Assembly (NCBI GenBank): GCA_034766995.1
Contig: CM068313.1
Location: forward strand, 377,501-441,500
Reading direction: 5' to 3'
Source of the DNA: Acanthacorydalis orientalis
Lineage: Eukaryota > Arthropoda > Insecta > Megaloptera > Corydalidae
DNA: 64,000 nucleotides
The position numbers and the translations under genes are program-made. Shown piece after piece: positions 29,400-64,000 of the stretch. How positions within the stretch are numbered: the first letter of the stretch is position 1; each line of letters starts with the position of its first letter. The notes under the pieces are model-generated. The model was not told where the DNA came from. It saw nothing but the letters and a program-made list of their open reading frames with translations, and made no database searches.

Positions 29400-32300
29400 T
29401 CAACAGTCGACACTAGTTTCACTCTCGTCCCGCTCGTTCGACTTGGCGATACACTTTTCGGCCAACCTCTGCAGCTGCTCCATTTCGTTCTCGAGGTCGA
29501 TCTCGCCGACGGCGTCCGGCCGGGCCGGCGCCGCCTGCTGAGCGCGCGGCGGCGAGCGGGCCGTCGCGACGAAGTTCGAGAACGCGTCGCCGAACGACTT
29601 CGAGTTGTCCGCCGGCGCCGGCCTCTTCGCGCCGTCGTGCGGCCTCGGCGACCCGCAGTCCGGCTTCTTGAACACGACGTTGCTGGTCAGCAGCTCTTCG
29701 AGGTCGCTCGCCGACGGGGTCCTCTCTTTCTTGGGTTTACTCGACGCGACGGCGACGTCGCGTATGCTCTCTCTGATCGCTTCGGCGATCGCGGCGAGGT
29801 CCTCCTCGGAGTCGACGACCGCTCGGTTCGTCCACGCGAGCTCGTGCTTCCGTGCCGTCTCGTCGGTCCGCACGCCGGCCGGCGTCCTCGTCGAGACGGC
29901 CGGCGTCACGCTCCGCGGCCCGCGTTCGTTTCTCTCGTCGGACGACGACGTCGAGACGTTCGACCGGACGGCGTTCCCGACGGACTCGTCGTCGTTTTCG
30001 GAATCGCCGTCCTCGGCGACGGACCCGCGGTCGTTCCGCTCGTGCGCGTCCGGGTCGTATTTCTTCTCCGGCCCGTCGTCCGCTCTTCCCGCTTCGACGC
30101 TCTCCCGCCCGTCGAATTCGTCCGGCGCCGACGCCACGTCGCCGCCGACGGGCGATCGGACGTCTTCGATTCGAACGTCGTCTCCGACGAGCGCGTCTCT
30201 CGACTCGTCTTCGATGACGGTGACGTCGTCGTCGTTCCAAACGTCCGTTTTGTTTTCGGCCGTCTCGTCGTCGACCTCCTGCACCTCGGGCTCGCCGCCG
30301 TCATAATCGTCGTCGTCGTCGTCGTCGATGATGACGACGCTCTTCGCGCTCGACTTGTTCGAAACGACGCTGTCCGTGTCGTCCTCTTCGTCCTCCTCGG
30401 CGACGTAATCGGAATCGTCCCTTTTGGCGGCGGCGGCGGCGGCGTCGTCGTCGTCCGACTCGTCCGAGTCGCACGTCACCTGCATGTCGTAAATGTGATC
30501 GGTCTGATCGCACGGCTGGCCGACGTACGTCGACCGTCTCGTTTTCCGGCCCGGCCTGTCGTCCGCCGACCGCGAGCCGTGCGTGTCCTCTGCCGGACGC
30601 TTTCCGGACTCGGACGGCGAGTCGTCCGTGTTCACGCCCCCGTCGACTCTGCAGCGCTCGTTCCACTCTTCGTCGATGTTTTCGACGCACCGGGTCTCCT
30701 TCGAATTCGCGTCGATCGTTAAGCGCTCGTTCGACGGCGCGTCCGGCTTCGCCGTGACGTCGGAGTCGGTCGCCAGGTCGCCGGTGATCGTCATCGCCGG
30801 CGACTCGCTCCGAGCGACGTCGACGAGCCGCCGCAGGTCGTCGAGTATCGTCGGTATCGCCGCGTCTGCGGCCGGCACGGCCGATTCGGCCGAGACCATC
30901 GAGATGGGCCGGCTGAACGGCAGCGACGTCGCGTTCGACGGCGTCGAGCCGTTCACGATGAACGTCAGCGGGGGCGGGACGTCGTCGGCGGAATCGTGCA
31001 CGATCGCCGACGGCACGGCGCCGGGCGGCTCGTCGTTCTTGTTGCCGCTCGCTTCGGCGCCGGGCGCGCGGCTCGACGGCGCGTGCTTGAAGTAGTTGCT
31101 CGTCAGCCTCCGCTTCAGGTCCTCGATCTTGTCGATCGACGACTGTATCCGCACCAGGAAGTTCGTGTACAGGTATTCCGGGTTAGCCGTGCCGCCGTTG
31201 TACAGGTGCATGAGCTCGACTATGTTCGTCGTGAGCGCCTGTATCACGAACTGCCACTCGGATATCGCTCTGTCGAACCAGTCGAGCCTATCCGTCGACG
31301 TGTCGGCGCTCGCAGGCGCCGGCGGGAGCGTCTGCAGGACGATCGGCGCGGTCGTCACGCCGGGCGGGACGAGCTTCGCCGGATCTATGTAGAAGGACCT
31401 GCCGTCCGGCGAGACGATCTTGATCATCTTCTGGACTGTCTCCGGGAGTTTCATCGGCACGTGCCGCGTCGGCCGCGGCCGGATCGGTCGCGGCGCGTCC
31501 TGCGCCGCGGCGGTCTTGACGAGCGGCGGAGGATCTTTCGGCGAGACCTTCAGGACGGCCGTCGGATAGATGAGCGGCGGCGGCATCGAGTTCTTCGGCG
31601 TCGCGGCGCTCTCGAGCAACTTCGACGCCGGCTTGACCTGCACGTACGGCTTCTTCGGCGGCGGGTCTTCGATTATCTTGCAGTCGTCGTCCGAGTTCGA
31701 GGACGCCGTCGGCCGCGGCTCCTCGGCGTTCGTCGGGTTCCGGGGCGCGGGGTCGTCGACGTCCTCCTCCTCGCCGATCGGGAGTATGTCCGGCGTGCAG
31801 ACGACCTCGTCGCTGTTCTCCTCGGCGACGATCGGCGGTTCGGGAGGGGGCGGAGGCACGACGGGCGGCGGCGCGACGATTTCCGGGCCGGACTTCGACG
31901 CGGGCTTCGCGACTCGTACGGTACCGTACGGTTTCGGAAGTATCGTCTGCTGACAGACGCGAAGCTTCTTCGCCGATCGGTCGTCGGGTTCGGGCAACGG
32001 ACGTTTGAGCCCGGTCGCGTTCCGAGCGAACGTCTCGAGCGTGTCGACTTCGGTTTTCTTCTGCTTGTCCTTTTTGCAACACGTCGTACAGTCTTGGGAG
32101 AGGAGCGCGATTTGCTGCGGCGTCCGTTTCTCGGGGCTGAAACACGTACGACGTTGACGTCGACGACTAGTGAACCGAGAGAGCGACGAGACTCGAAACG
32201 TATCGGCGTTTCGCGAGAACGGAACGGACGTCGCGTCGCTCGTGAGTTACGGCGAGAACGCGCTATTCGCGGAGGGTACTTTCGCTACGACGTCGAAAAA

Positions 32301-33625
32301 ATACGAACCGTGTCGCACTCGTCGCGAACGAAGTACGAGACGGTTTAGACACCGGAGTTCGTTCGTTCGACGGACGCTTTTTTCACCGGATAACGGAGCG
32401 TTCGCCGTCTCCGACGTCGGTATGAAAAATCATATCGACGACGACGACGATAAAAGGGGAAAAAATCGAACGTTCCTCTACCGTGAAGTATCTTTACTCT
32501 ACCGCCTGATCGGAATACGTTCGAGCACCTCGTCGTTTTTACAAACATTTAATTGAAAAGGAACGGGGGGGGCGTTCTTTAACGGCTTTCAGAGCAGACT
32601 CTTTCCGTATTTCGCTAACGTCGCTCGCGTTTCGATTTACGAGCCTCCTATCGTATTTTTATGTTCGACGGCCGATATCGTATTTTTATTTTTTATTAAC
32701 GAGCTCGATTTTTTCGTTTCTCTGCCGCATCGGACGGAAACGATAAAAAGATCCGATATATAAAAAAAAGTACACGTGTCGGCTTCAGAGAAAAACGATA
32801 GCGATCGGAGCATCCGTCTTGTTCTCTACGCACTCACTCGATCGAACACAGCTGCGAAGAGTACCGCTTGAGAGCCCAGTTTATCGCCCTGTGCATCCAG
32901 ATATCGTCCGGACGGCACCCGTAACACAGCCAGTCGTCGCTCTGCTCGATGCTCTTGACCATCGTCGTTCCGAGGTTCCTCTTGATGCATTTCTGCGCGA
33001 CAGATCGAAAAGAACGATATACCGACGACGTATCGAAAGAGACCCGAAGCCGGCGCTCACCTTACAGAACACGAACGGACAGATCGCGCAGCAGTAGACC
33101 TGCCCGCCCTGGCCGCACCACCTGCAGTACAGCTCGCTGCCGTCTTCGTCGGTCTCGAACTCGCCGCTCGTGTAAAAGTCGTAACACTGCAGGCACATCA
33201 GCACCTTGAGCAGCGGATGCTCGAACCGATTCCTCTGGGTCGCCGGAGCGCTTCCGAGGTGCTTGTCGCAGCTCGTGCAGTGGATCCGGTAGAAACGGAC
33301 GCCCGAGACATCTGCGGTTCGACACGAGACCGATACGTTTACGTGCGTTACGATCTAGAGCGCATAGATATAAACAGTGCGTTACCGCTGAACTTCTCGT
33401 GATAGTAGTCCGTCTCCTCCTTCGAAACCTGGCACGACTTCACGTTCGGTCTGACGCCGAGCGTTGCGTTCGACCCGAGCGCTGCGAACATAGAGAGAGA
33501 GAGAGAGAGAGAGAGAGTGTGAGAAGAAGCGAACGGTCGCGAGACACGGCGGCGCACGCGCTCGACTCACCGTCCTCTTCGTCGAATTCATCCGAGGCCA
33601 TCGTGGCGCCGTCGACGACGTCCAT
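29400..33625 (-). CDS. ADD-domain chromatin protein, copy A (5 exons)
   Basis: Minus-strand exons in order: 33625-33571, 33481-33386, 33311-33061, 32992-32838 and 32136-29400. They sum to 3294 bp (1097 aa). The ADD domain covers about residues 55-170. It has GATA-like zinc ligands (HCTSC at residues 62/65, MCLQC at 90/93), then a PHD-like part: CRWCGQGGQVYCCAIC, FCKKCIKRNLG and WLCYGC. This matches the ATRX ADD pattern (CRWCxEGG...FCKKCILRNLG). Such domains read the H3 tail, unmethylated at K4 and methylated at K9. No SNF2 helicase follows, as with the insect ADD1 protein, which is separate from the helicase. The rest is long, charged and probably disordered, with poly-Asp stretches, a conserved KIVSPDGRSFYIDPAKL motif and a helical part near WFDRAISEWQF. 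A second in-frame ATG (33601) before MASDEFDEEDG may be the true start, since that stretch is best conserved in copy B. Confidence 0.85.
33493..33517. repeat. (GA)n in ADD-A intron 1
   Basis: A short GA run (CT on the gene strand) lies just upstream of the exon 2 acceptor and acts as its pyrimidine tract. Copy B has a shorter, interrupted version at 40144-40160. Confidence 0.85.
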
Positions 33626-34011
33626 CGTCTCTTTCTAGGTTAAAGCGACCCGCTCGGCGACGGCGTTTCGCTCGGTCGCCCGTTTGCGGTCTGTTCTCGA
33701 TACGTGTGCGGCGCGCCGACCACTCGCTCGCTTCGTACATACACGACGCTCGTATCAGAGCACGAAAACACACACTAGAGAATCGCTGTCATCCATCTTA
33801 TTGTTCCCGGCATTAGCTTGTTTCGCGAGCTTCGAAACGCAAGCGATAGGTGTCATCGCTATAGGTACCCGTCGTCGATGCCGATGGTGGGGGTCGACAA
33901 ACAGATATCTGTGCCTAGCGTCACGTCGCACGAAATTCCAGTTGACAGAACGCGGTTCGACTCGACGAGGATGTCGCTCGTGGTCGCCGAAATCGATGCC
34001 GGTCGAATACG
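33626..34011. promoter_or_regulatory. Duplicated divergent promoter, copy A
   Basis: The 385 bp between the ADD-A start and the orphan TBC1D19 exon 1 is homologous to 40258-40639. Shared stretches include GATGCCGATGGTGGGGGTCG and the following GCACGAAATTCCAGTTGACA. No TATA box is obvious. This is the copy of a bidirectional promoter whose rightward gene is lost here. Confidence 0.65.
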
Positions 34012-34113
34012 ATGGCCGAAATCAAAGAGAAGAGTATACACAGGACGGCGCCGAAACTCGTCGAGGATTCGCGTGAGACGAAGAATCACAAGTCGCTGTA
34101 CTCGGACGTGCAG
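34012..34113 (+). pseudogene. TBC1D19: Orphan TBC1D19 exon 1 (duplicate)
   Basis: This 102-bp exon copy begins MAEIKEKSIHRTAPKLV, ends SLYSDVQ and keeps the GTGAGACGG donor. It differs from the real exon 1 (40640-40741) by a few silent changes and two replacements, Leu14 to Pro and Leu20 to Ser. No exon 2 follows before ADD copy B, so it cannot make TBC1D19. A transcript from it would be non-coding or make a short peptide. Confidence 0.85.
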
Positions 34114-35539
34114 GTGAGACGGATTCGAACATGCATTCTGACGTAACGGCGCACGCGCACCGCCGCTCCGAAGCGCGCGGGCCCGCCCCCCCAGTGGAAA
34201 GATCATCGCTCTGACACGTGATGTTCCGACATACGTCAGCATTGTTGCGGGGTTTACGCGCGTGCGCAAGAAAGACTCGTTCGTTTGCGCGCGCAAAGCA
34301 AAAATCACGGTTCGCAGACGAACAGCGCGCGCGATGATGGCGCCGACGTCTGTACGAATAGTCTGAAATCGTGTTCGCTTCCGTGGCGGTAAAACGTCAG
34401 CGAGCACGTCTGTCGACCCGTGCGTGTAGAATTATTGTTGCTAGTACTCTTCCTAGATTCCACTGAGCTGTACGAGTCGCACCTTTCCGCATCAGTAGAA
34501 ATAAATAGGAGATTTTTAACGTTCGCTTCTCCCTTCCACGTGTACGCGTTCGTTCCATCGCTTATCGGTAGTTCGTTTTGTATCGAAAATCGAATAAAAA
34601 CCGGACAGTTGTCAGAGTGAGTTAAATCTATGGCTTGAGAAAAAAGACGAACACGGAGCGACGATTAAAAAGTCTGTGAGCTTGTAAAGAATAGAAAAAA
34701 GGTCGAAAGAGTGCAGGTTCGTGGATTTTCCGCAAGATGAAGAACGGATCGAAACGAAACGAGGGAGCAGGTCCTGTTTGCGAAACACTGCTCGGCCCAC
34801 GAGAAAAACATCCTTTCGGAATAACAAGGGTCCAGTGCGGGGGGTCCATCGAAACTGTCGATTGAAAGCGTGAAAATTGCCGAAAGTAGCGAACTTTCGA
34901 ACTAGGATACTTTGTACATCGTCGACAATCGTCTAAGAATACCGAAGGTGAGTAAAGGGCAAGTACCTGGAATTGCAAACGCGGTTCAAGGACGCCGATC
35001 AGTGAAGCTATTTCGGAATTGTTTAGAGATATGTGCGCGGCACTCGCGAGGAGAATGCGGCTCGTTCGATTGTGAGAGAGAGGATGCCGTTCTGTATCAC
35101 GATCGTACATCGGGAATGGAGTACATGGAACGGTATTAAGAAAAAAGGAAAACGGTCTCGCTGAAATTCGACAGAAACTCGAAACGAGCAGTTTCTTGGA
35201 ATTCCAAAACCAGCCGTCCTTTACTATCCGTGAATAAGAGGCTTCGCAGACACTGAACACGGGCCCCGGAGATCAGATACGGTTGCTCTTTACTTTCAAA
35301 AGCGGAAGCCGATACTCGGACAAGTCCAACAAGCCGTTCTTGATCGTTTTGTCATTTGGCAAAACTTGGACATTTTTATGGCACAGAAGTTTTCACTGTA
35401 AGAGGATTTTGGATTTTTTGAAGACGACCAGGAAACTCCTCGTCGCAGTCCCTACTTCTTGTCAAATCTCACGTTGGAAAATCCGACACCGTTCACCGAC
35501 TCTACCGTCACTTTCAGACCTGTCGCTGATAAGATCGGC
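34114..35539. other. Degraded spacer within the duplicated TBC1D19 head
   Basis: After about 20 bp of intron-1 match (GTGAGACGGATTCGAACAT) similarity to the real intron is lost. No TBC1D19 exon 2 or 4 copy is visible. At 35510-35524 the string TTTCAGACCTGTCGC matches the acceptor and first bases of real exon 3, but the following codons do not, so it is at best a decayed trace. Confidence 0.5.
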
Positions 35540-36170
35540 ACGATGGGACGAACTAGCTCGTGTTATTAATTTGACCCTGTTTTTAATTTGTACGCCTGAT
35601 CATAATTAAGCAGGCTGTATTTTGGGTACAACAGACGGTCTTACGTACGGAAAAATTAGCTCTGCGGATAGAAACACTGGGGCCGATACATTTGTGTCGG
35701 CTGTCTATGAAAGGGGATACTTACCGTTTTCGACCGTCGAACCGTATTCTGTACGCTAGAAACGCTCGTGAGAAATCGTTTCTAGACTATGTTAAACACT
35801 GAACGTTCGGCGAAGTAGAGAGGTAAGGGGAGGGGGGAGCAGAATACGCTTGCGTACCGTCTTTTGTCAGCGACGAGCCGTGCGGCCTACGTCGCGTTCC
35901 GAAATGAATATCTAGCAGCTGTGTGGCTGCTATTTGAAACTGAAAAGACGGCCGTTCTGTGTGTCCTTCGAAGAGACGTGGGCGGCGCGCGTGGCAACGG
36001 CTTCAACTGTCTGCTTAAAATGATTGGAGCGACGCAGTTTCAATGCCGAGTGATAATCGCCGGTCGTGCTCGCTGTTTAATCACACTAGACGCTCGTCGA
36101 ATTTCACCTGTTTGTTCGATAACGTTGCCCTCTGGCGATTGTTTTCTGAAGTGAAACTTCTTCAGCCGCG
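35540..36170. pseudogene. TBC1D19: Relic of TBC1D19 intron 4 (duplicate)
   Basis: About 600 bp align with 45064-45680 in the real TBC1D19 intron 4, in the same order and orientation. Shared strings include TTTGTTCGATAACGTTGC, GAAAAGACGGCCGTTC and GTCGCGTTCCGAAA. It places the right end of the duplicated block inside intron 4. Not coding. Confidence 0.75.
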
Positions 36171-36564
36171 TTGGGTATAAATTTTCAAGGCCGAGACGGA
36201 AAAGCGAACGTCACCGAAATTGTTACGGCGTGGAGTGGTATTGAGAGAGAGAGAGAGAGAAGATGGTGGTGCTTTGTTTATAATTTTAGTGTATGAAAGA
36301 ACAAAACGCTATTAATCTCTATCTGTCCCCTCAGAAATAACATCTTTATTTCTATACACTTCTAGATTTCGTAGAATATTTTATCTTACACATCTACTTT
36401 CAATTTGTGTCGTTGATCAAATACGGGACATAACATCAGCAACATAAATAGTACGATGAAAGCGACAAACAATTGAAAATCAAGATACAAAAATAAACGT
36501 GAGGAGGACGGTCCAGTCTATCGTGTTTTCCTCCCAGAATCAATTTCAAAGTTATTTGTATATA

Positions 36565-36614
<50 letters not shown>

Positions 36615-36617
36615 TAT

Positions 36618-36676
<59 letters not shown>

Positions 36677-36683
36677 TATACAC

Positions 36684-36714
<31 letters not shown>

Positions 36715-37020
36715 TATATTTATATATATAGAGAGAGAGAGAAACATTTGTACTTTTTGGACTAACGAACTCTTGTACTCTTTTTTTTGTATTTTTGATT
36801 TTTAAATATCTTCAACATTTTTATGTATAATCGAAAACCATTCACTTAACATGCTCTTAAAACCCTTCACATTTCAACTGACAGCACGGAAGCTTCACTT
36901 CCGACGCGCGTACTGTGTCACGCACGCCCTTTTCCATTATTTCTTAAATGACACACGACCGTTCCTACATTGTAATCGATCGAACGAATATATAATAAAA
37001 AATAAAACAACACATTTCGT
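36171..37020. other. Intergenic between duplication copies
   Basis: AT-rich DNA with a (GA)n run at 36244-36262 and a long (TA)n microsatellite at 36560-36730 that ends in GA repeats near 36731-36743. I see no gene. Confidence 0.5.
36560..36743. repeat. (TA)n(GA)n microsatellite
   Basis: About 170 bp of TA with scattered TAC interruptions, then a short GA run. Confidence 0.95.
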
Positions 37021-37045
37021 TACTCGAATATTATAAACGCAATAC

Positions 37046-37051
37046 TTTATT
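37046..37051 (-). terminator. Polyadenylation signal, ADD gene copy B
   Basis: AATAAA on the minus strand, about 235 bp beyond the stop codon of copy B. Confidence 0.55.
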
Positions 37052-37071
37052 AATACTTATCAAAAACTTTT

Positions 37072-37241
37072 TAAATAAATATCGATTGTTCTGACATATA
37101 AAGTCCGGTATTTGCAAAATTATGCGAGCCGTCCGTGAAGATGTACTTCCACGTGAAAATGCCTTCCCGGCTGGGCACCGAGGCGAGACGCACGTTCCAG
37201 ACCGTCGAAGTCGGCGCGCCGTCGGTGGCTCGAATCACGCC
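37072..37241 (-). pseudogene. Unidentified coding-like remnant downstream of ADD-B
   Basis: In the same frame as ADD-B, after its stop and a second in-frame TAG, the minus strand is open for about 54 codons. It has a protein-like composition, including TVWNVRLASVPSREGIFTWK and IFTDGSHNFANTG. Codons are GC3-rich, like real exons nearby. I do not recognise the family. It may be a captured exon fragment at the duplication junction, or chance. Confidence 0.3.
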
Positions 37242-37286
37242 AGTGTCGCCGGTCTATTCGCCGGCCGTCGGGCTCGACGGCCCTTC

Positions 37287-40257
37287 TCACCCGCGCTCGT
37301 TTTTCCGTTCGGACGACGACGTCGAATCGTTCGACCGGACGACGTCCACGACAGACCCGTCGTCGTTCTTAGAACCGACGTCTTCGGCCACGGACCTGCG
37401 CTCGACCCGCTCGTCCGCGTCCGGATCGTATTTCACTTCCGGCTCGCCGCCGAGCACGTCTTTCCACTCGTCTTCGTTGACGGTGACGTCGTCGTCGTCG
37501 TCGCCGCCGCCGTTCCAGCCGTCGGTTTTGTTCTCGATCGTCTCGTCGTCGACCTCCTGCGCCGCGGACTCGCCGCCGTCGGAGGCGACGGCGCTCTTCA
37601 CGCTCGACTTGTTCGAAGCGACGCTGTCCGAGTCGTCCTCTTCGTCCTCCTCGGCGACGTAATCGGAATCGTCTCCGTCGGCGGATTCGTCCCCGTCGGT
37701 GGATTCGTCGTCGGCGTCCGACTCGTACCGGCCGTGCGTCGCCCGTGCGCCGTAATCGTACGTCGACCGTTTCGTCCTCCGTTCGGGTCTCTTGTTCGAC
37801 GCCCGCGTGCCCCGCGTAGCGTCTGCGGGACGTTTTCCGGACTCGAACGGCGAACCGCCGGTGTTCGCCGTCCCGCCGACTATGCCGCGCTCGTCCCACT
37901 CTTCGTCGAGGTTTTTAACGATTACGCCGGAGCACCGAACGTCCTTCGAATTCGCGTCGATCGTCGAACGCTCCGTCGGCAGCGCGTCCAACTTCGGCTT
38001 GACGTCGACGTCGGTCGCCGGATCGCCGGTGATCGTCATCGACGCGTCGGCGGCCGGCACGGCCGCGACCATCGGAATCGGCCGACCGAACGGCGCGACG
38101 ACTCGCGGATCGTCGTTCTTCGCGCCGGGCGCGCGGTCGAAATAGTCGTGCGCGAGCCTCTGTTTCAAGTCCTCCATCTTGTCGATCGCCGACTGAATCC
38201 GCGCCTGGAAGTTCGTGTACAGGTGATCCGGGTTCGTCGCGCCGCCGTTGTACAGGTGCGCGAGCTCGACTACGCTCGCCGTGTGCGCCTGCGCCAGAAG
38301 CTGCCACTCGGAAATCGACGTGTCGAACCAGTCGAGCCTCTTCGTCGACGTGTCCGCGCTCGCCGGCGCCGGCCGGAGCGTCTGCAGGACGATCGGCGCG
38401 GCGGGCACGCCGGGCGGGACGAGCTTCGCCGGATCTATGTAGAAGGACCTGCCGTCCGGCGAGACGATCTTGATCTGTTGCGTCGGCGCGTTCTGGACCG
38501 CCACCTTCTGCGCCGGACGCGGTCGGATCGGCCTCAGCGCGTCGGTCGCGACGGCGGTCTTGACTAGCGGCGGAAGATCTTTCGGCGCGACCTTCAGGAC
38601 GGCCGTCGGGTAGATGAGCGACGGAGGCGGCGGCATCGGGTTCTTCGGCGTCGCCGTGCTCTCGAGCAACTTCGACGCCGGTTTGACCTGCACGTACGGC
38701 TTCTTCGGCGGCGGATCTTCGATTATCTTGCGGTCGTCGACCGCGGCCGCCGACGTCGGCTCCTCGGCGCCGGTCGAGCTCTGCGGCGTCGGTTTGACGC
38801 ACTCGTCTTCCTCGCCGATCGTGAGTATGTCTGGCGTGCAGACGACCTCGTCGCCGTTCTCCCCGGCCGAGATCGGCGGTCGGGGCGCCGGCGCCGCGAC
38901 CGGCACCGGCGCGACGACTTCCGAAACCGGTTTAGGAATCGGGTTCACCATCACGGCTCGTACGGTCAGGGTCGGTTTCGGAAGTATCCTCTGGTGCCGG
39001 GTCGTGACCTTTTTCGCCGTCCGGTCGTCGGGCTCGGGCAACGGACGCTTGATCCCGGTCACGTTCTGCTTGTCCTTTTTGCAACACGTCGTGCAGTCCC
39101 GGGTCAGCAGGACGTTCTGTTGCGGAGTCCGTTCCTGAGGGCTGAAACACGTACGACGTCGATCACGACCGGCGAACGCGTCGGCCGGCGAGCGAAGAGG
39201 GCGACGAGACTCGAGCGAGAGCGTCCGACGAGAACCGGACGGACGACGCCGGCCACGCGTCCGCGCCTCTACGAGAACGCGACGCGCCGCCCGTCGGCTA
39301 CGACGGACACGCCGAGCGTACGATCGCTACGGATTCCGAGAAACACGAATCGCGGCGCCCTCGTCGCGAAACGACCGTACGAAGTTTCCGATCGGCGGAG
39401 CGCGACCGACCGTCGTTTCGCCGTCCGGCGACGCGAACGTACGGGCGCTCGGTCGCGCGCGTACGCGCCGGTCCCTGCGCACTCACTCGATCGAGTACAG
39501 CTGCGAAGAGTACTGCTTGAGAGCCCGGTTTATCGCCCTGTGCGTCCAGATGTCGTCCGGACGGCATCCGTAGCACGTCCAGTCGGCGCTCCGCTCGATG
39601 CTCTCGGCCGCCGACGTCCCGAGGTTCCTCACGACGCATTCCTGTACGACAGATCGACACGGACGATCACGAACGACCGAAAACGACCCGACGCCGGCAC
39701 TCACTTTACAGAACACGAACGGACACGCCGTGCAGCAGTAGACTCGCCCGCCCTGGCCGCACCACCTGCAGTACAGCTCGCTGCCGTCTCGGTCGGTCTC
39801 GAACTCGCCGCTCGTGTAGAAGTCGTAGCACTGCAGGCACATCAGCACCTTGAGCACCGGATGCTCGAACCGTTTCCTCTGCGCGGCCGGAGCGCTTCCG
39901 AGATGCTTGTCGCAGCTCGTGCAGTGGATCCGGTGCGAACGGACCGCCGAGACATCTGCGGTTCGACACGAGACCGATCGGTTTACGTGCGTTACGATCT
40001 AGAGCGCATAGATATGAACGGTGCGTTACCGCTGAACTTTTTCCGGTAGTACTCGGTCTCCTCCTTCGACACCTGGCACGACTTCACGTTCGGTTTGACG
40101 CCGAGCGTCTCTTTCGGCCTGCGCGCTGGAAACACAAAGTAGGGAGAGAGAGAGCGAGAGTCAGCGGAAGCGAGACCGCGGCGGTGCACGCGCTCGACTC
40201 ACCGTCGTCTTCGTCGAGTTCATCCGAGGCCATCGTGAAGCTGACGATGACGGCCAT
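37287..40257 (-). CDS. ADD-domain chromatin protein, copy B (5 exons)
   Basis: Minus-strand exons in order: 40257-40203, 40125-40030, 39955-39705, 39641-39487 and 39141-37287. They sum to 2412 bp (803 aa). The first four exons have exactly the lengths of copy A (55, 96, 251 and 155 bp) and the same phases. The ADD zinc ligands are all kept: CTSC, MCLQC, CRWCGQGGRVYCCTAC, FCKECVVRNLG and WTCYGC. The tail is shorter. Internal deletions remove acidic repeats, and the frame stops after ERKNERG, where copy A continues for about 190 residues. That stop comes from about 9 extra bases (GTGAGAAGG) relative to copy A. They also look like a splice donor, so an extra 3' exon is possible, but no phase-compatible acceptor is evident nearby. 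The alternative start is the ATG at 40233 (MASDELDEDDG). Confidence 0.83.
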
Positions 40258-40639
40258 CGTATATTTCTAGGTTAGAGCGACCCGCTCGGCGACGGCGTTC
40301 CGCTAGGTCGCCCGTTTACGGTCTGTTCTCGCTACGTCTGCGGCTCGTCGACCCTTCGCCGGCCTCGTGCACGCACGACGACCGTACCTAAACACTAAAA
40401 CTCGCTGTTATCCACCTTATTGTTACCGGCTTCGGCTTGTTTCTCGAGCTTAGACGTGTAAACAATAGGTGTCATCACTATAGGTAACCGTTGTTGATGC
40501 CGATGGTGGGGGTCGATAAACAGATTCTGTGTCGAGCATCACGTCGCACGAAATTCCAGTTGACAGAACGCGTTCGTATACTACGGGAAGCACGCTCGTG
40601 GTCGCCGCCAGTGCACGGTGCCGTTGCCAATCGAACACG
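40258..40639. promoter_or_regulatory. Divergent promoter ADD-B / TBC1D19
   Basis: Only about 380 bp separate the two divergent start codons, so both genes must start transcription here. The region keeps the stretches shared with copy A (33626-34011), including GATGCCGATGGTGGGGGTCG near 40497. No TATA box is clear. Conservation between the duplicates points to the functional core. Confidence 0.7.
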
Positions 40640-43600
40640 ATGGCCGAAATCAAAGAGAAGAGTATACACAGGACGGCGCTGAAACTCGTCGAGGACTTGC
40701 GCGAGACGAAAAATCACAAATCGCTGTACTCGGACGTGCAGGTGAGACGGATTCGAACATCGATAAAAGATCAGATGACAAGGTACGGGCTATAAATCTA
40801 CGGGTGTAAAAACGATCGATGCTGACATAGCCAGGTGCCACTGTCCGCGCGATATTTGTGCGGGAGACTTGAAATTTGAATATTAGCGCCGGTATACATT
40901 CCCATTCGGACATATTTAATTGTAATACAACCTTATAATAATTGTCGAGTAATCGATTCGATATAAAATACGAAATTCATCACTTTAAAACTATTATAAA
41001 ATCGTGTTAAAGTTAAATATTTCCGAATGGACGTGAGTATGTATTAAATTATCTAATTTATTCGCGGTCGTACTGTTGTACGATGCTGTTTACGATTCAC
41101 AAAAAAGACAGCTGTCTATGTAATTTATTTACTTTTAGAAAATATTTAACTAAACACTAGTGATAGATACAAAAAAAGATATCATTCGACACAACACCAA
41201 AAATTTGCTCTACCATCGAAACCAAAGGAAGGGGTCTTTTTTTCGTTTTTGAGGAACTCGAGGAACGCTTTCAGGTTATTGCATCCCATGTCACACCCCG
41301 TGTCCAAACGACTCTACTCGCCGAATAACTTCAAAGGTCATTCGTGACAAATGATCTGAAGTTCAATTTCGATAAAAGTAGTAGGCAGTCGGCTGCTTCC
41401 ATCCACGTCTCGCGTCTCGCACCATAAAAACCATGACACTGTTCCGAAATCGTAACCGTGCCCGGTAATTCTGTCGGCACGTAGGCGATACGACGACCCC
41501 TCGCGAATTGACATTTCATCGAACACTAACGAACAGAAGTTGTCGTCGCCCTCTAAATTACTGATTATGCGTGTTAGGCACGACATAACGTAGTCGTTCG
41601 CGCCTGGTTTCAAACGGATCGGTCTCAAAACAGTCGTTTAAGAATCGATCGACGGTAAAGCTGTTGTGTATCCATCCTCACCGCTGTACTTGTTTATAAA
41701 TGTGTCACGGCTGACTAAAGAATTTCATCATCGAGAGCGGTATATAAAACACGTGCGCATTCATATCTTTAAGCTGATTGTTATAGTTTCAAATGAATTG
41801 TACAATAATTAAAGTATATATTTATCAACGATCAATTTAAACGTATACACTGCGACGACAATCGGCGATAGTATGCTGTTCTATTCCGGTTGATTGTTAA
41901 GCTTAAAAGCCACAACAGTACATAAACGGTGGTTCCTTCCGGTTTTTTGAAAATCTTTTCCGGAATTCAACACTTCAGACCATCCGCTATGCCCACTTCC
42001 TGAATCGCTATTCTCCTGTCAAAACCGGTTTAAGACCCCGGACCGAACCCCAAATTCGGCGTTGAAACATGTAAAATTCACCACAATAAAATATTTTTTG
42101 ATTTTGTTTTTGATTTTTTGATCTCGTAAGTCAGTCAAGTAACAGAACGCTTGTGGTTATATTCATCATAGTAACAACAATTAAACAATTAATAGTAAAC
42201 AAATATTTGTTGTGTTTTATTTCAAACCTGTAGCATTTATGTTATAAAAATGTCCAAGAGATAACATAACATTTTGGTGTCAGAGGTGGGATCGATACAT
42301 AACACCTCCCTCCTTAAAAATAAACATACGGTTATTAAACATTAAATACATTATTGAATATAATTTAAAAATACAATATAGATAACATATAATCAGTTAT
42401 TTACTTCCTTTAAATTATGCCAGATTTCTAAATAATAATGAACAGCCTGTCGAAATTCTATCGAACGATATCATACACTAGAACCTTTCAATGAAAAGGA
42501 AATATTTCGATTTTCTTCGAATAGCAAACTCAAAGATATCAGTCGAAATGGCAAAATAGTAAAAGAAATTAGAACCTCCCATTTAAATATCGAAGAAAAG
42601 GAATCACTTTTAAAAAGATGTAAAGATTTTAATCGTATATTTCACTTAGACGGTGACATTCTAACTCGAACTAACTCTATGAATCATGCAATTCCTGTCA
42701 CGTCTCAAGTGCCTATGTATACTGAAAACTGTCGACGCCCACGAATTCGCAAACGAGAAGTCCAAAATCGAATCGATAGTATGCTACGACAAAAAATTAT
42801 CACACCGTCGACCTCTGCTCGGTCGTCACCACTTTGGGTCGTACAAAAATTAAAATAAATATTTTTTGTTAATTTATAAAGGCCAATGTAAACATTTATG
42901 AATTTTAAAAAAAAATCAGTACACCATCAAATTTTAAAACAGTTATCGGTCGCAATCTAAAATGCACGTTATATATATTGTATCGTATGACATTGTACCG
43001 TTTTGAATTACCAAATTAACTTACACGAAAGTCAGTGTTTCGATTCGAAATAATAATGGAAACATTGCATATCGTGGCTACAATTTCGATAGCAATTATA
43101 ACAGAACCGTTTGTAATTTTACAATATAAACGGACGAATAATTTTACAATATGTCGAACAGCGTCCTTTCAAGCATGCGTGCGTGTTTCTTTGGCCAGTA
43201 AGAAAGCGTACGTACACGTTCACGTTCACTGCCGATAGTAAAACGGTACACAGAACGACTTGTAAATTGAACGGCTGACGCCGTCCACTCGTGTCGGCGT
43301 CACTCAAGAAGCACGCTCGACGCTCTCCGTGTCGCTTCGACCCGGCCGCCGGCCGCGGAAGTCGTTCCGGACGGGCGGCCGCGCGCAGACCCGCGCTCTG
43401 CGTTCGGCCGAACCGATCCGGTCCGTCGGAACGCTCGAGCCCGCCCGTCCGCTCTGTGCAGAAACTCGTCGCGTCGCCGTCGATCAAGACGAACGACTTC
43501 AAGAACACGATGCTGTTGGCGCTGAAGTCGAGCGGGCTCGAGACCGTGCTGCGCAACCACGTCTACCACTGGATACGCGCGAACAATCCCGGCGGCGTCG

Positions 43601-46600
43601 AGATGAACGACGTCGACTCGGCGACCGACTGGAAGTCGCACCTCGACAAGGCGCAGGTCCAGTGGGAGAAGCGGATACACAAGTCGATCAACTCGATGTG
43701 CACTGACCTGGACGCGAGCCTCGCGCGGATACGCACGCCGTCCGATCGCGAGGAGCTCGCCGAGAAGTGGACGGAGCTCAGCACGTACGATATAGGTGAG
43801 CGCCGGAGGTTCCTCCTCCAGGGGGTTCTGGAATGCCCGGGGATCTTTCCGGAAGCCGGTCTTTCTGGAATCACCCGGAACTCTGTCTCGATATCGTCGT
43901 ACTAAGTGTTCCAGAACTTGTTACAATCTTTCCGCGATACTTTCGTTTCTGTTTTACTAACGGCTCGCTCGCGACCGGAAATCAATCGTTTATTGTTTTT
44001 AATCGAAATGCGCACAAACGACAATCAAAAATGATCGATGACGATTTATCAGAAATTTATTTGTCATTAAAAAAAACAATCCATGCGTGAAAGTGAAACT
44101 AGATCCAGTGTCAGAACTGCATCGTGGCGATTGTTTTAAAACAAACGTCGAACATAAGTATTTAAACAGAGCTTTTGTTTTGTTTTTTTTTTTTTTTTAA
44201 TCTCTATCGTTGTCCGTAACAGTTTATCATTTGTTCTGTAGATGTTCAAATATTTTTTTTTGTAGAAATACGGCCGTCTCGATCGAAAATAAATTTCTGT
44301 ACAATCGGTTTCGTCTCGACATCTTGTCACAGAGCCATCAGTGCATGTTTCTATATGTTCGTGTCCCATCGATGCGTTTGTCTGATGCTTCTCGTCCTTT
44401 CGGGTCTCTCGAGTGTCTGTCTTCCGCGAGTATCCGTCGTCGGATAGATTCTAAATCGCTCGTTTACACGACGACCGCACTCGAGCCGAAACCATCAGCG
44501 GAGACAGACTCTCGTGCGATCCGGGCGGACGAAGGCCGCCACGAAGATCCCCGCAACGTCTCCACAAATCGCGCGTCGGAAAACCCGACGTCGTTCGCCC
44601 ACGCTGCCGTCCCTGTTTCAGACCTGTCGCAGTACAAGCCGGTCTACGCGCCGAAAGACTTCCTCGAGGTGATCCTCGGCCTCTACTGTCCCAGCGACCG
44701 GAAAGAGGAGTGAGTACCGCATCCGCACGTGCTGAAAGACAGAATTAACAGACCGAGACCTGTCACGGTCTGCGGGTCCCGCGTGCAATTCGCCTGTCGT
44801 TCTGATTTCCTGCGTGCGCGTTGTTCAGTCGTTCCGTTCGAGCCCTCGGACGTCGTCCGAACGGCGGTTCCGACGGAACGACTCTTGCGATCCGTACGCA
44901 CGTATAACCGCAGACGTTTTCTTACTAGTGTGATATTTGCATGCAGCGGCGCGCCACAGTGGGAGTTCACGCACGTACCGCTCAAAGTTAAGACGCTGAC
45001 GAAACTGGTAAGTATCGTGCGTCGTTCGAGCGGGTGTCCGAACGGATCGAGCGCGTGGATGAGAATGTGACGAACGAGCTCGTGTGCAATTAATCGGGCC
45101 CCTGTTTCAAGTCGGCGCGCCCGACCCGTAACACGACCGGACCAGCTGCACACATCGTGTACATCCGACGGTCCCGCTGTTACGGCGGAAAAGTGCGGCT
45201 CGTCGGCTAGGAACACTCGGGTCGATACGTTCGTTCTCGTGTCGGGCGTACTGACTTTCCGACCGTCGGCCTACGTTCCGTACGCTCTCGGATCGTCGTG
45301 AACACAACAAACGTACTGCGACGGCGGGAGGGAAGGGGGACAGGGAGTACGCATGTGTATTGCTTTTTGTCGGCGTCGCGTTCCGAAACGAATATCAATC
45401 AGGTAGACCGCACGGCTGCTCTGCTCGAAACTGTGAAAAGACGGCCGTTCCGAGGACGCCTGCGATCCAGGCGGCGTGCATGGCAACCGCTTCGACTGTC
45501 TCTGTTCTAAACTGTCGAGAGCGGCGCAGTTTCGTGGCGAGCGATCACGGCTGGCCGTGCTCACTGTTCGATGACACGGGACGCGTTTAGAATTTCAATT
45601 GTTTGTTCGATAACGTTGCTCGTTCGTAAATTGCTTTTCGAATTTCGCCGCGAACGTGCGGCCGTTCACATTTACGGCCGGTCGTACTGAACACAGATAA
45701 GATGTTGTTCCGATACCATAAACAGAAATGTCTTAAAACAGGCGCGGGCGACCGTTCGTAGTTCGGCGGCCAGATTATCGTTCCGTCTCCGAGTCGAGCG
45801 CCGGACCAAATTAAACCAAGTAAAATAAATTAACATTAAATGAATTGCAGTGTGTCGCTGCTTCATATTTCATTCGTCGTGTCGTTCAGTTACTTCGCTC
45901 GTCTTCTCTCGTCGAAAATTACATTCAGAGCCGTGGGTGAATCTCTGTCTCTCTCTCTCTTCCTCCCTCCCCCACCTCCTTTACGCACATCCGCCGTCAC
46001 GGGCCGATCTTCCGCGCGAGTGTGTCGAATGCACCGAACGTAGACCGGCTAGTCGACACGGATGCAGACGTGCGCGTGTCCGGACCGAATGTGCGCGCCG
46101 TCCGGAGGAACGCGCGCACGCACCGGGTGTAACGGTCGTCTTTCAGCGCGCTCACTACTCGGAGCTCGCGCGCGGCGAGTCGATGATCGGCGTGAACCCC
46201 TACATGCCGTCGAGCACGAACTTCCCGACGCTCGAGGCGGAGAGGACGACGCAGGGCGAGAAAGTCATCGGCGAGAACCACGCGCCGATCGCGCAGGAGT
46301 TCCTGAAGCGTGGCAGCCCGCGCTGCCTGCGCAGCAAGCTGTGGTCGCAGGTCCTCGGCTCCGAGATCAAACAGAACGTGAGTGCTCGGTCGCGCGCGGG
46401 CCGGCCGCCGCGCCCGGCGCCGTCGGTCGCGTGTTCGACCGCGAGGTCCGCGCGTCGCCCCGCGGCCGTCGGGCGCTCGAGCGTCCGCCGCCGGGCGCGG
46501 CGCGCCGGGCCGCCGGTCCGCCGCCGAACCGACGCCGTCCGTGCCCGCAGAGCCGCGACCACTTCCAGCACCTGAAGCGGTGCGTGCTCCAGTACGACCT

Positions 46601-47468
46601 GATGGTCGACAAGATCATCATCAAAGACATACAGCTGACCGCGTGCAACGACGACCAGTACTTCGTGTTCGAGGACGTGCTCTATCAGGTGTTGCTCTGC
46701 TTCTCGAGAGACTCCGACATACTGTTCGCGCTGAAGGACAAGCCGGGCGCTCCGCTGCAGGTGCCGCTCAAGAACAAGGCGCCGTCGATGTCCTCGAACG
46801 CGAACAACACGGTGCTGTTCCCGCCGAGCGGCGTCATACCGTTCCACGGGTTCTCCATGTACGGTGAGTTGTCGTGCGGTCGCGCGACCGGGCCGCCCGA
46901 CCTCGCGCTGACGCTCGGTTCCGTTCGCCAGCGACGCCGTTCTGCTACCTGTACGACGATCCGGTCGTCCTGTACTTCACGTTCAGGGCGTTCTACCTGC
47001 GATACTTCTACCGGCTGCACAGCATCGGCGCGCATCCGCAGAGCGTCATGTCGCTGTGTCTGCTGTACGAGCGGCTGCTGCAGACGCACGAGCCGCTCCT
47101 GTGGGCGCACGTCAAGGACTGCGGAATACAGCCGTGAGTGTCCCCCGTCCGCGGGCGTGCCGGCGCGTCTAGACGTCCGCCGTCCGTCATTCGCTCGACG
47201 TTTCCGCTCCAGTGTTCGGCTCGTGTTCAAGTGGCTGATGCGCGCGTTCAGCGGACACCTGCCGCCCGAGCAGCTGCTCTACCTGTGGGACCTGATCCTC
47301 GCGTACGACTCGCTCGAGATAATCGCGCTGCTCGCCGTGTGCGTCGTGACGTTCAGGAAGGAGGCGCTGCTGCAGGTCGACAGTCTGGCGAGCATGGAGA
47401 GCATACTGAGCGACCTGTCGACGGTCGCCGTCATGCCGCTGCTGCAGATGGCGCTGCTGACCGACTAG
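40640..47468 (+). CDS. TBC1D19: TBC1 domain family member 19 (8 exons)
   Basis: Exons: 40640-40741, 43462-43795, 44622-44709, 44947-45007, 46147-46377, 46551-46863, 46932-47133 and 47213-47468. All are GT-AG, phases match, and the sum is 1587 bp (528 aa; human TBC1D19 is about 526). Diagnostic stretches are QWEKRIHKSINSMCTDLD, YKPVYAPKDFLEVIL, FLKRGSPRCLRSKLW (residues 247-261), TACNDDQYFVFEDVLYQVLL, GVIPFHGFSMY (residues 366-376), FKWLMRAFSGHLP and LSTVAVMPLLQ. TBC domains act as Rab GTPase-activating modules. Here the usual motif with the catalytic Arg reads IIKDIQL and the YCQG position reads PFHGF, so canonical dual-finger catalysis is unlikely. The family elsewhere shows the same. Expression probably starts from the shared divergent promoter. 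Confidence 0.95.
42275..42860 (+). mobile_element. Ty3/Gypsy LTR retrotransposon relic in TBC1D19 intron 1
   Basis: At 42275 TGGTGTCAGAGGTGGGAT fits a primer-binding site complementary to a tRNA-Leu 3' end, directly after an LTR-like end (ATAACATAACA). At about 42540-42858 a decayed reverse transcriptase N-terminal part is readable: EEKESLLKRCKDF, IFHLDGDILTRTNSMNHAIP, then IDSMLRQKIITPSTS and SPLWVVQKL. These are hallmarks of Ty3/Gypsy pol just before the RT core. Gag, protease and the rest of pol are missing. The 5' LTR probably occupies part of 41900-42272; no 3' LTR was found. Confidence 0.75.
42861..43461. other. Remainder of TBC1D19 intron 1
   Basis: AT-rich up to about 43200, then GC-rich just before the exon 2 acceptor at 43460-43461. 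No further coding or element signal is seen. Confidence 0.5.
45190..45680. repeat. TBC1D19 intron 4 block shared with 35.6-36.2 kb
   Basis: Source-side copy of the duplicated intron sequence. It carries the same ordered strings as 35650-36170 and marks how far the ancient duplication reached into TBC1D19. Confidence 0.75.
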
Positions 47469-49420: not shown

Positions 49421-49761
49421 TTAACATTATCGCGTGGTATCCAATTCGATTGAATTACTTTCCAGAATGGCGTAGTTTTTACCAAAAAAAACCCATTTTT
49501 GAAGCAGTTTTTCGGCTATAAGTAGTCGAAATTAACTGCGAAACGGCTATTATCGTACATGGTTAGATGCGTCTTAACATTATCTATCACGTGGTATCCA
49601 ATTCGATTGAATTATTTTCCAAAATGGCCTAGTTTTTTACCAAAAAAACCATTTTTGACCCTGCTTTTCGGCTATAAGTAGTCGAAATTAACTGCGAAAC
49701 GGCCATCATCGTACATGGTTAGATGCGTCTCAACATCATTATCTATCACGTGGTGTCCAAT
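49421..49761. repeat. Isolated 155-bp satellite fragment (~2.2 units)
   Basis: It carries the satellite landmarks in order: GGTATCCAATTCGATTGAAT, CCCATTTTTGA, TTTTTCGGCTATAAGTAGTC and GGTTAGATGCGTC. It is of the older variant also seen at the left edge of the main array. Both sides carry the 8-bp direct repeat ATACACAC (49413-49420 and 49760-49767). Confidence 0.85.
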
Positions 49762-50458: not shown

Positions 50459-50776
50459 AATCTCCACCGATTCGGTCAGAGACAGAACCGCATTCTAACC
50501 ATACTTCTATCGATTTCGTTTAAAAAATACGGGCTTCCCCACAAAGAAAACAAGATCGTTTCTACAATTCTTATTATGCGAGGCAGCTTCTTCGTCGAAT
50601 CTTCTGTATGTTTATCGAGCGACGAGCGACGAGAACAAATTTCTCGGGCCGACGCTCGACAAGGAAAAAAATGTTGAGAGTCACTGGCTCCGTGCTACTA
50701 CGTCGTGCGTTTTGACACGTCGTGTGTCAGCGGATCCGTACGTCAAACCCGAAAAGCGACGACCGCTGCCTCGACG

Positions 50777-62600: not shown

Positions 62601-62845
62601 CAAAAAACCCATTTTTCAAACAGTTTTTCGGCTATAAGTAGTCGAAATTCAGTGCGAAATGGGTAATGTCGTATATCGTTAGATGCGTCTTGAAATTATC
62701 TATCACGTGGTGTGCGATTCGATCCGATTATTTGCCAAAATGGCCTTATTTTGCCCAAAAAAAACATTTTTCAAACAGTTTTTCGGCTATAAGTAGTCGA
62801 AATTCAGTGCGAAATGGGTAATGTCGTACATCGTTAGATGCGTCT
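53622..62845 (+). repeat. 155-bp satellite array (~59 units)
   Basis: Units recur every 155 bp; for example TCGTTAGATG starts at 54151, 54306, 54461 and so on, exactly in register to 62831. Landmarks are ATCACGTGGTGTGCGA, CCAAAATGGCCTTATTTTGC, TTTTTCGGCTATAAGTAGTC and GAAATGGGTAATGTCGTA. The first two units (53622-53990) are of an older variant with CCAATTCGATTGAAT; from about 54000 the units are nearly identical. Variable sites (TGTAATT or TGAAATT, GATTCG or GACTCG, TTCGG or TTCGC, GTACA or GTATA) mix in blocks without one strict higher-order period. Open frames within it are by-products. Confidence 0.98.
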
Positions 62846-64000
62846 TTTTCGTGATTTTTGGACAATGTCTAAAAATCCTCGTGAAACCTGGGTGAATTTT
62901 AGACAATGTCTAAAAATTCTCGTGAAACCCGGGTGATTTTTGGACAATGTCTAAAAATCCTCGTGAAACCTGGGTGAATTTTAGACAATGTCTAAAAATC
63001 CTCGTGAAACCTGGGTGATTTTTAGACAATGTCTAAAAATCCTCGTGAAACCTGGGTGATTTTTAGACAATGTCTAAAAATCCTCGTGAAACCTGGGTGA
63101 TTTTTAGACAATGTCTAAAAATCCTCGTGAAACCCGAGTGATTTTTGGACAATGTCTAAAAATCCTCGTGAAACCTGGGTGATTTTTAGACAATGTCTAA
63201 AAATCCTCGTGAAACCTGGGTGATTTTTAGACAATGTCTAAAAATCCTCGTGAAACCTGGGTGATTTTTAGACAATGTCTAAAAATCCTCGTGAAACCCG
63301 AGTGATTTTTAGACAATGTCTAAAAATCCTCGTGAAACCCAAGTGATTTTTGGACAATGTCTAAAAATCCTCGTGAAACCCGAGTGATTTTTAGACAATG
63401 TCTAAAAATCCTCGTGAAACCCGAGTGATTTTTAGACAATGTCTAAAAATCCTCGTGAAACCCAAGTGATTTTTGGACAATGTCTAAAAATCCTCGTGAA
63501 ACCCAAGTGATTTTTGGACAATGTCTAAAAATCCTCGTGAAACCCGAGTGATTTTTAGACAATGTCTAAAAATCCTCGTGAAACCCAAGTGATTTTTGGA
63601 CAATGTCTAAAAATCCTCGTGAAACCCGAGTGATTTTTAGACAATGTCTAAAAATCCTCGTGAAACCCGAGTGATTTTTAGACAATGTCTAAAAATCCCC
63701 GTGAAACCCAAGTGATTTTTGGACAATGTCTAAAAATCCTCGTGAAACCTGAGTGATTTTTAGACAATGTCCAAAAATCCTCGTGAAACCCGAGTTATTT
63801 TTAGACAATGTCTAAAAATCCTCGTGAAACCCAAGTGATTTTTGGACAATGTCTAAAAATCCTCGTGAAACCCGAGTGATTTTTGGACAATGTCTAAAAA
63901 TCCTCGTGAGACCCGAGTGATTTTTAGACAATGTCTAAAAATCCTCGTGAGACCCGAGTGATTTTTAGACAATGTCCAAAAATCCTCGTGAAACCCGAGT
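62846..64000 (+). repeat. 41-bp satellite array, runs off the window
   Basis: About 28 units recur every 41 bp; CTCGTGAAAC is at 63001 and again at 63042. Each unit holds TTTTTAGACA, one base, then TGTCTAAAAA, a palindrome, followed by TCCTCGTGAAACC. The array begins abruptly inside a 155-bp unit and continues past the window edge. Unit ends vary: CTGGGT in the first third, then CCGAGT and CCAAGT. Confidence 0.97.

What the first reader, a model, noticed from the sequence alone, without database searches (positions are those of the whole stretch)
29400..47468. Tandem duplication spanning an ADD gene, a divergent promoter and the head of TBC1D19
Two minus-strand ADD genes have identical lengths for exons 1-4. 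Both are followed by homologous promoters, and both promoters lead into a TBC1D19 exon 1. Intron-4-like DNA lies further right in both copies. Only the right copy has a whole TBC1D19. One event explains this: a block from inside the ADD gene into TBC1D19 intron 4 was copied in tandem, and the left copy of the TBC1D19 head decayed and shortened (about 1.5 kb between exon 1 and intron 4, against about 4.4 kb).
Basis: partly seen in the sequence, partly recalled or inferred. Interest (0 to 1): 0.8.

Follow-up and report, generated by a model that had tools for sequence, protein, structure and literature searches.

The report
Partial tandem duplication of insect ADD1–TBC1D19
In an insect genome, a stretch covering most of a chromatin-reader gene, its two-way promoter and the start of the neighbouring gene was copied side by side; both reader copies still look like working genes, one of them without its tail, while the copied start of the neighbour has fallen apart.

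Summary
The "ADD" genes are two copies of insect ADD1, a relative of the ATRX histone-reader domain. Exons 1-4 have identical lengths. About 29.9-36.15 kb and 37.25-45.64 kb are collinear direct repeats with ADD1, a divergent promoter, TBC1D19 exon 1 and intron-4 DNA. One partial tandem duplication explains this best. The left unit keeps full-length ADD1 but only exon 1 and an exon-3 stub of TBC1D19. The right unit keeps whole TBC1D19 but an ADD1 without its C-terminal tail.

Both ADD1 copies look functional: 558 of 787 aligned residues identical, open frames, omega 0.68, 38 of 38 invariant ADD columns kept. The left TBC1D19 head is dead. L and R are sisters next to Chrysoperla, so the window is probably neuropteridan.

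"Decayed and shortened" is partly right: the interiors show no homology to each other, so insertion or replacement played a part. Also seen: ADD1 and TBC1D19 have consecutive locus tags in three beetles, so the pair is probably old. Not tested: expression, and further copies in this genome (searches unanswered).

The parts
29400..33625 (-). ADD1-L, full-length copy (1097 aa); exons 33625-33571, 33481-33386, 33311-33061, 32992-32838, 32136-29400
   Evidence: spliced ORF; Pfam ADD_ATRX 1.6e-9; best PDB match ATRX ADD 2lbm, 8.8e-25
33626..34011 (.). Left copy of the divergent ADD1/TBC1D19 intergenic (promoter) region
   Evidence: 306 of 372 aligned bases identical to 40258-40639; promoter function inferred from position
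34012..34113 (+). Left TBC1D19 exon 1 remnant, frame open, two replacements (L14P, L20S)
   Evidence: (tblastn 94% of 34 aa, 7.6e-15)
35454..35526 (+). Left stub of TBC1D19 exon 3: end of intron 2 with acceptor and the first 9 exon bases; rest missing
   Evidence: match to 44556-44630, E 8e-11; alignment
35543..36152 (.). Left copy of TBC1D19 intron 4 DNA
   Evidence: 64% to 45065-45644, E 3e-40 and 6e-47
36153..37209 (.). Duplication junction DNA, including a TA array (86 units) at 36559-36730; no counterpart found at either outer breakpoint
37287..40257 (-). ADD1-R, C-terminally truncated copy (803 aa); exons 40257-40203, 40125-40030, 39955-39705, 39641-39487, 39141-37287
   Evidence: Pfam ADD_ATRX 8.1e-10; PDB ATRX ADD 2lbm 7e-24; omega and ORF tests
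40258..40639 (.). Right copy of the divergent intergenic region, shared by ADD1-R and the intact TBC1D19
40640..47468 (+). TBC1D19, complete: exons 40640-40741, 43462-43795, 44622-44709, 44947-45007, 46147-46377, 46551-46863, 46932-47133, 47213-47468
   Evidence: exon 2 end moved by one base to 43795 by hand to restore the frame; 528 aa, 62% identity over 100% to Frankliniella TBC1D19; RabGAP-TBC 5.4e-13
45065..45644 (.). Right copy of the TBC1D19 intron 4 segment, where the duplicated block ends

Best explanation
A single direct tandem duplication copied a block running from inside the last exon of ADD1, through its divergent promoter, into intron 4 of the neighbouring TBC1D19. The left ADD1 kept its own 3' end and is full length; the right TBC1D19 kept its own 3' end and is complete. 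The left TBC1D19 head could make no full protein, lost exons 2 and 4 and most of 3, and is a remnant. The right ADD1 has no C-terminal tail; its stop codon lies at the edge of the homology, in a 9-nt stretch without counterpart in the left copy, and an AATAAA motif lies 236 bases downstream in junction DNA (motif only). Both ADD1 copies have since stayed protein-coding. Inferred: ADD1-R is a tail-less ADD reader expressed from the promoter region that it shares with intact TBC1D19, while ADD1-L keeps the ancestral full-length role; R would bind histone tails and XNP/ATRX through the shared N-terminal part but lack the tail's contacts.
For: Collinear direct homology with the expected complementary truncations; no convincing trace of the ADD tail or later TBC1D19 in the junction. 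L and R are sisters (100/97) beside Chrysoperla (98/87) in the ADD tree. Coding constraint: 558/787 aa identical, Ks 0.261, Ka 0.178, omega 0.68 (bootstrap 0.54-0.87). At 231 random substitutions 0 of 1000 (from L) and 2 of 1000 (from R) neutral runs stayed free of stops. Of 2361 aligned coding bases 2327 are in the same codon phase; the other 34 lie in three short stretches. 38 of 38 invariant ADD columns kept in both. L's tail matches the Chrysoperla C-terminus (5e-6). Left TBC1D19 exon 1 has S at a position that is I, L, M, V or F in 112 of 120 homologues.
Against: Omega of 0.68 is weak constraint: of nine segments with a ratio only three (exon 3, residues 187-330, 331-480) have intervals below 1, six include 1, and residues 701-800 give 1.6 (0.94-3.8); exon 1 has 8 replacement and no silent changes. 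With 115 substitutions 30 and 39 of 1000 neutral runs are stop-free, so the ORF argument for R alone weakens if R carries few of the changes. Asymmetry of R over L is not significant (11:3, p 0.057 in the domain, 20 unresolved; 40:28, p 0.18 overall). About 1.06 kb of unmatched DNA sits at the junction and its exact edge is not resolved. No expression data, no related genome read.
Confidence: 0.85

Rival explanations
1. A larger duplication copied both genes whole; the ADD 3' end and the TBC1D19 exons 5-8 at the junction were deleted afterwards.
For: The junction is about 1.06 kb of unmatched DNA, so something inserted or was lost there. No repeat was found at the outer breakpoints that would explain the block by unequal crossing over: best of the weak matches E 0.17.
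Against: No match to TBC1D19 beyond intron 4 in the junction, tblastn of the ADD tail best E 3.1, one 31-base reverse-strand match to the ADD flank at E 0.016; needs at least one extra event.
Confidence: 0.12
2. ADD1-R is a pseudogene that happens to be open.
For: Lost conserved tail; in R, E to R, Q to R, K to E and D to A changes give residues that 0 of 40 other rows have, and W to R changes a residue that is W in 28 of 40 and R in 3; omega not below 1 in six of nine segments; 30-39 of 1000 short neutral runs stay open.
Against: 803 codons open; at 231 substitutions 0 and 2 of 1000 neutral runs stop-free; R keeps 14 of L's 15 cysteines in the aligned region, the missing one being cysteine in 0 of 40 others, and 38 of 38 invariant columns; overall omega below 1; the TBC1D19 head of the same block has decayed.
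Confidence: 0.12
3. Assembly artefact: two haplotypes placed in tandem.
For: Tandem arrangement next to a microsatellite is a known place for misjoins (recalled).
Against: 408 of 2361 aligned coding bases differ, too much for alleles (inference); complementary truncations and a dead TBC1D19 head do not look like alleles. Read depth was not available.
Confidence: 0.02

Closest known systems
Drosophila ADD1 (dADD1, CG8290) and the insect ADD1 family
   Same: Separate gene with an N-terminal ATRX-type ADD domain and a long remainder without known domain; the ATRX gene split in insects (PMC4249797, passages read).
   Different: Two tandem copies here; one lacks the C-terminal tail. Drosophila makes three spliced isoforms with different C-terminal regions (PMC4249797 and PMC10671109, passages), some with MADF domains that neither copy here shows up to E 1.
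Duplication-degeneration (partial duplication with complementary loss), as in the monkey-king family and as suggested for the ATRX split itself
   Same: Copies each lose a different part. PMC4249797 names this process as a possible route for the ATRX fission (passages).
   Different: Here the copied block straddles two genes, so loss hits ADD1 on one side and TBC1D19 on the other; TBC1D19 ends with one working copy.
Second ADD1 model of Sitophilus oryzae (LOC115886369)
   Same: An additional ADD1 that ends short: residues 1-655 of 663 match 125-755 of the 924-aa copy at 87%.
   Different: Lies on another contig than TBC1D19; also lacks the first 124 residues, so it may be a partial gene model; its missing end was not shown to match L's tail. 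Groups with the other Sitophilus copy in the tree, so a separate event.

Membership tests
Insect ADD1 (ATRX-type ADD reader) | ADD_ATRX domain with its cysteines | tested here: met
   Pfam PF17981 above cut-off in both; ATRX ADD structures best PDB matches; 38 of 38 columns invariant in 40 other rows kept in both, R keeps 14 of L's 15 cysteines.
Insect ADD1 (ATRX-type ADD reader) | No SNF2 helicase in the same protein | tested here: met
   Only ADD_ATRX found up to E 1 in both proteins.
Insect ADD1 (ATRX-type ADD reader) | Groups with other insect ADD1 in a tree | tested here: met
   L+R with Chrysoperla ADD1, 98/87; 40 other rows picked by hand from the 120 listed. All rows are insect ADD1-like or unnamed; no ATRX outgroup was included.
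Insect ADD1 (ATRX-type ADD reader) | Conserved C-terminal module | tested here: inconclusive
   Present in L and Chrysoperla, absent in R; among the 292 proteins held (120 of them TBC1D19) only Chrysoperla matched L's tail at E 0.01, so it is not shown to be general.
Insect ADD1 (ATRX-type ADD reader) | Binds H3 tails and XNP/ATRX | not testable with these tools
   Needs binding assays.
TBC1D19 | Full-length similarity and TBC domain (right gene) | tested here: met
   62% over 100% to Frankliniella TBC1D19, RabGAP-TBC 5.4e-13.
TBC1D19 | Full-length similarity and TBC domain (left copy) | tested here: not met
   Only exon 1 and 9 bases of exon 3 remain; tblastn of the protein finds exon 1, other matches E 3 or worse.
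Partial tandem duplication | Direct, collinear copies with breakpoints inside genes | tested here: met
Partial tandem duplication | End of one copy joined directly to the start of the next | tested here: inconclusive
   About 1.06 kb of unmatched DNA with a TA array lies between them; later insertion or decay is assumed.

The most novel reading that the evidence does not exclude
The duplication turned a splicing option into a gene: the tail-less ADD1-R acts as a permanent short isoform that competes with full-length ADD1-L at heterochromatin, with a changed histone-facing surface (E to R beside the acidic patch, role recalled) and a swapped promoter partner (TBC1D19 now shares its promoter with R, not L). 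A second, short ADD1 model in Sitophilus hints that a short extra ADD1 may have arisen more than once.
Probability: 0.2. Interest if true: 0.55.

Novelty: new member of a known kind. Interest (0 to 1): 0.4.

Why it matters
It is a clean internal experiment: two halves of one duplicated block have the same age, and one half (ADD1) stayed coding while the other (TBC1D19 head) decayed. It also points to an old ADD1-TBC1D19 neighbourhood in beetles and perhaps Lepidoptera, and gives a natural test of what the C-terminal tail of a heterochromatin reader does.

Tried and rejected
Haplotype or assembly artefact: rejected on divergence and complementary truncation. Larger duplication with later loss: no convincing trace in the junction, kept as a rival. 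Unequal crossing over between repeats at the breakpoints: 29500-30100 against 45400-46100 gave only matches of E 0.17 or worse. How far homology runs past R's stop: the word-11 search stops at 37290; the first 22 bases after the 9-nt stretch match at 15 of 22, and a 37-base local match in a shifted register is reached by 3 of 1000 shuffles; I do not claim more. Special conservation of the left TBC1D19 exon 1: 6/102 differences is low against introns (p 2.6e-4), but as the right exon is constrained only one lineage drifts, and 6 is then unremarkable (P 0.107); dropped as evidence of function. Conserved promoter: 66 of 372 differences against 89 of 437 in introns 1, 3 and 4, not significant (p 0.37). 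Strong asymmetry of R: trend only. RT-like ORF in TBC1D19 intron 1: no Pfam hit to E 0.1, no hit in NCBIfam, a prokaryote library, to E 1. Rfam: 0 hits in the window at gathering scores. Literature: searches for dADD1/ATRX/Drosophila (10 papers), TBC1D19+duplication, ADD1+TBC1D19 (39, 2), CG8290+ADD1+duplication and any three of ATRX/ADD domain/insects/gene duplication/Neuroptera (41, 20 of 87 listed) showed no paper on this pair or duplication by title and abstract start; of two papers I read passages, of the rest only the listing.
Full report
What is there. The window is insect DNA by its proteins' nearest relatives. The two minus-strand genes carry an ATRX-type ADD domain (Pfam PF17981 in both) and match ATRX ADD structures best (E 8.8e-25 and 7e-24). 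Database neighbours are the insect ADD1 family, known from Drosophila as dADD1, which the fly makes from a gene separate from the ATRX helicase (PMC4249797, passages read). The plus-strand gene at 40640-47468 is a complete TBC1D19 (528 aa; 62% to Frankliniella over its full length; TBC domain). I moved the end of its exon 2 by one base (to 43795) relative to the script, because that keeps the frame.

The duplication. Exons 1-4 have the same lengths in both ADD genes, 55, 96, 251 and 155 nt. BLASTN with 11-base words gives nine direct matches in one order, 74 to 89% identical, from 29919/37290 to 36128/45619. The truncations are complementary. The left unit has the whole ADD1, but of TBC1D19 only exon 1 and the acceptor with nine bases of exon 3; tblastn with the TBC1D19 protein finds exon 1 there and otherwise only matches of E 3 or worse. 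The right unit has the whole TBC1D19 but an ADD1 that ends at 37287-37289 with a TGA. That TGA lies in a 9-nt stretch without counterpart in the left copy. Homology beyond it is weak: 15 of the next 22 bases match, and a 37-base match in a shifted register is reached by 3 of 1000 shuffles. So the stop lies at or within some tens of bases of the block's edge. In the junction 36153-37209 there is no match to TBC1D19 beyond intron 4, and nothing convincing to the ADD tail (tblastn best E 3.1) or its flank (31 bases on the other strand, E 0.016). It contains a TA array of 86 units. This pattern is what one partial tandem duplication leaves, apart from the extra junction DNA.

Amendment on sizes. 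But the interiors 34133-35453 and 40765-44555 show no homology to each other, and the right interior holds an ORF (42442-42858) that reads like the start of a retrotransposon reverse transcriptase. That is a recalled resemblance; no family was hit. So the difference is deletion on the left plus turnover, and perhaps insertion, on the right.

Age and lineage. Coding Ks is 0.261. In a tree of the ADD region (42 rows; 40 picked by hand from the 120 listed), L and R are sisters (100/97), and their sister is Chrysoperla carnea (98/87); one unnamed row and the beetles come next. In a TBC1D19 tree (33 rows, 32 picked from 120, quick method) the window attaches beside the split of beetles from the rest, but no starred group holds it. 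The window is thus probably from Neuropterida, and the duplication younger than the split from Chrysoperla. One Chrysoperla ADD1 appears in the lists (best 120 of 237; 106 listed); both searches scored only part of the candidates and only certain lengths.

Are both ADD copies genes? 558 of 787 aligned residues are identical; Ka 0.178, omega 0.68 (bootstrap 0.54-0.87). By segment omega runs from 0.35 (exon 3) to 1.6 (residues 701-800, interval 0.94-3.8); in three of nine segments the interval lies below 1, in six it includes 1, and exon 1 (18 codons) has eight replacement and no silent differences. With 231 random substitutions, half of the pairwise distance, 0 of 1000 (from L) and 2 of 1000 (from R) runs stayed free of stops; with 115, 30 and 39 of 1000. 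In a nucleotide alignment 16 of 22 coding gaps are multiples of three; the other six compensate each other, as 2327 of 2361 aligned bases are in the same codon phase and 34 are off in three short stretches. All 38 columns that are invariant in 40 other rows are kept in both copies. In the same block the TBC1D19 head has decayed: exon 1 has L14P and L20S, and position 20 is I, L, M, V or F in 112 of 120 homologues and S in one. I read this as two protein-coding ADD1 copies and one dead TBC1D19 head.

What differs between the copies. L's tail (residues 957-1097) matches the C-terminus of Chrysoperla ADD1 (E 5e-6), with shared stretches such as AIRESIR, SNVVF and GDAFSNF; R lacks it. No other of the 292 proteins held (120 of them TBC1D19) matched the tail at E 0.01. 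R shows changes at conserved ADD positions: E to R, Q to R, K to E, D to A (0 of 40 others have R's residue) and W to R (28 of 40 have W, 3 have R); at several less conserved positions it is L that has the rarer residue. Polarised by Chrysoperla, R has 11 unique changes and L 3 in the domain, 20 unresolved (p 0.057), and 40 to 28 over the whole, 129 unresolved (p 0.18). This is a trend, not proof of faster evolution. The E-to-R change sits beside the acidic patch that in ATRX faces H3K4 (numbering and role recalled).

The old neighbourhood. In some searches the ADD1 and TBC1D19 hits of three beetles carry consecutive locus tags: Rhynchophorus GWI33_002041/002040, Molorchus NQ317_011813/011814, Exocentrus NQ315_016471/016472. 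Counted by eye in the listed rows, 24 species occur in both the ADD1 lists and the TBC1D19 list (best 120 of 723); in 19 the longest contig has the same length for both genes, in 5 not (Chilo, Manduca, Pieris brassicae, Spodoptera exigua, Abscondita). For chromosome-sized contigs this shows only the same chromosome. Orientation could not be checked. It suggests that ADD1-TBC1D19 is an old pair and that the window's divergent arrangement is inherited.

How it most likely works (inferred). Each ADD1 copy has its own promoter copy. R shares its promoter with the working TBC1D19; L's promoter now faces a dead head. In Drosophila all isoforms bind the XNP/ATRX helicase through the N-terminal 625 residues (PMC4249797, passages), and differ at the C-terminus (PMC10671109, passages). 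R should therefore keep chromatin and XNP binding and lack tail functions: a built-in short form. None of this was tested.

Verdict. The event is real and well explained, of a known kind: partial tandem duplication with complementary loss. Its interest lies in the probably old gene pair and the retained tail-less reader. A second Sitophilus oryzae ADD1 model also ends short, but it may be incomplete.

Noticed in passing
33312-33385 and 39956-40029: ADD1 intron 2 (74 nt in both copies) differs at only 4 of 74 bases, fewer than synonymous sites (p 3e-4) or introns 1, 3 and 4 (p 1e-3). It contains a repeated GTAACGCAC donor-like motif; conserved element or small gene-conversion tract.
   Followed up: partly
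Proteins P0067/P0234, P0278/P0223, P0289/P0235 (beetles): ADD1 and TBC1D19 have consecutive locus tags in Rhynchophorus, Molorchus and Exocentrus, and lie on contigs of equal length in 19 of 24 species found in both kinds of list (counted by eye): probably an old linked pair.
   Followed up: partly
P0062 versus P0115 (Sitophilus oryzae): A second ADD1 model on another contig, 87% identical, short at both ends.
   Followed up: partly
window 53682-62846 and 49428-49761: 155-bp satellite, 59 copies at 97% matches, with a related two-copy array of 156 bp about 4 kb away.
   Followed up: no
window 62851-64000: 41-bp tandem array, 28 copies, also matching its own reverse complement; runs to the window end.
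   Followed up: no
window 42442-42858: ORF in TBC1D19 intron 1 resembling the start of a Ty3/Gypsy-type reverse transcriptase (recalled motif; no Pfam or NCBIfam hit).
   Followed up: partly
window 50678-52903 and 15949-16494: Flanking genes: a DUF719 protein (FAM114-like, name recalled; 1.5e-51) and an exon of an MFS_1_like transporter (1.2e-12).
   Followed up: no
window 373-3844 and 19606-19906: Several diverged direct repeats of about 200-500 bp, and a near-palindrome of 300 bp.
   Followed up: no
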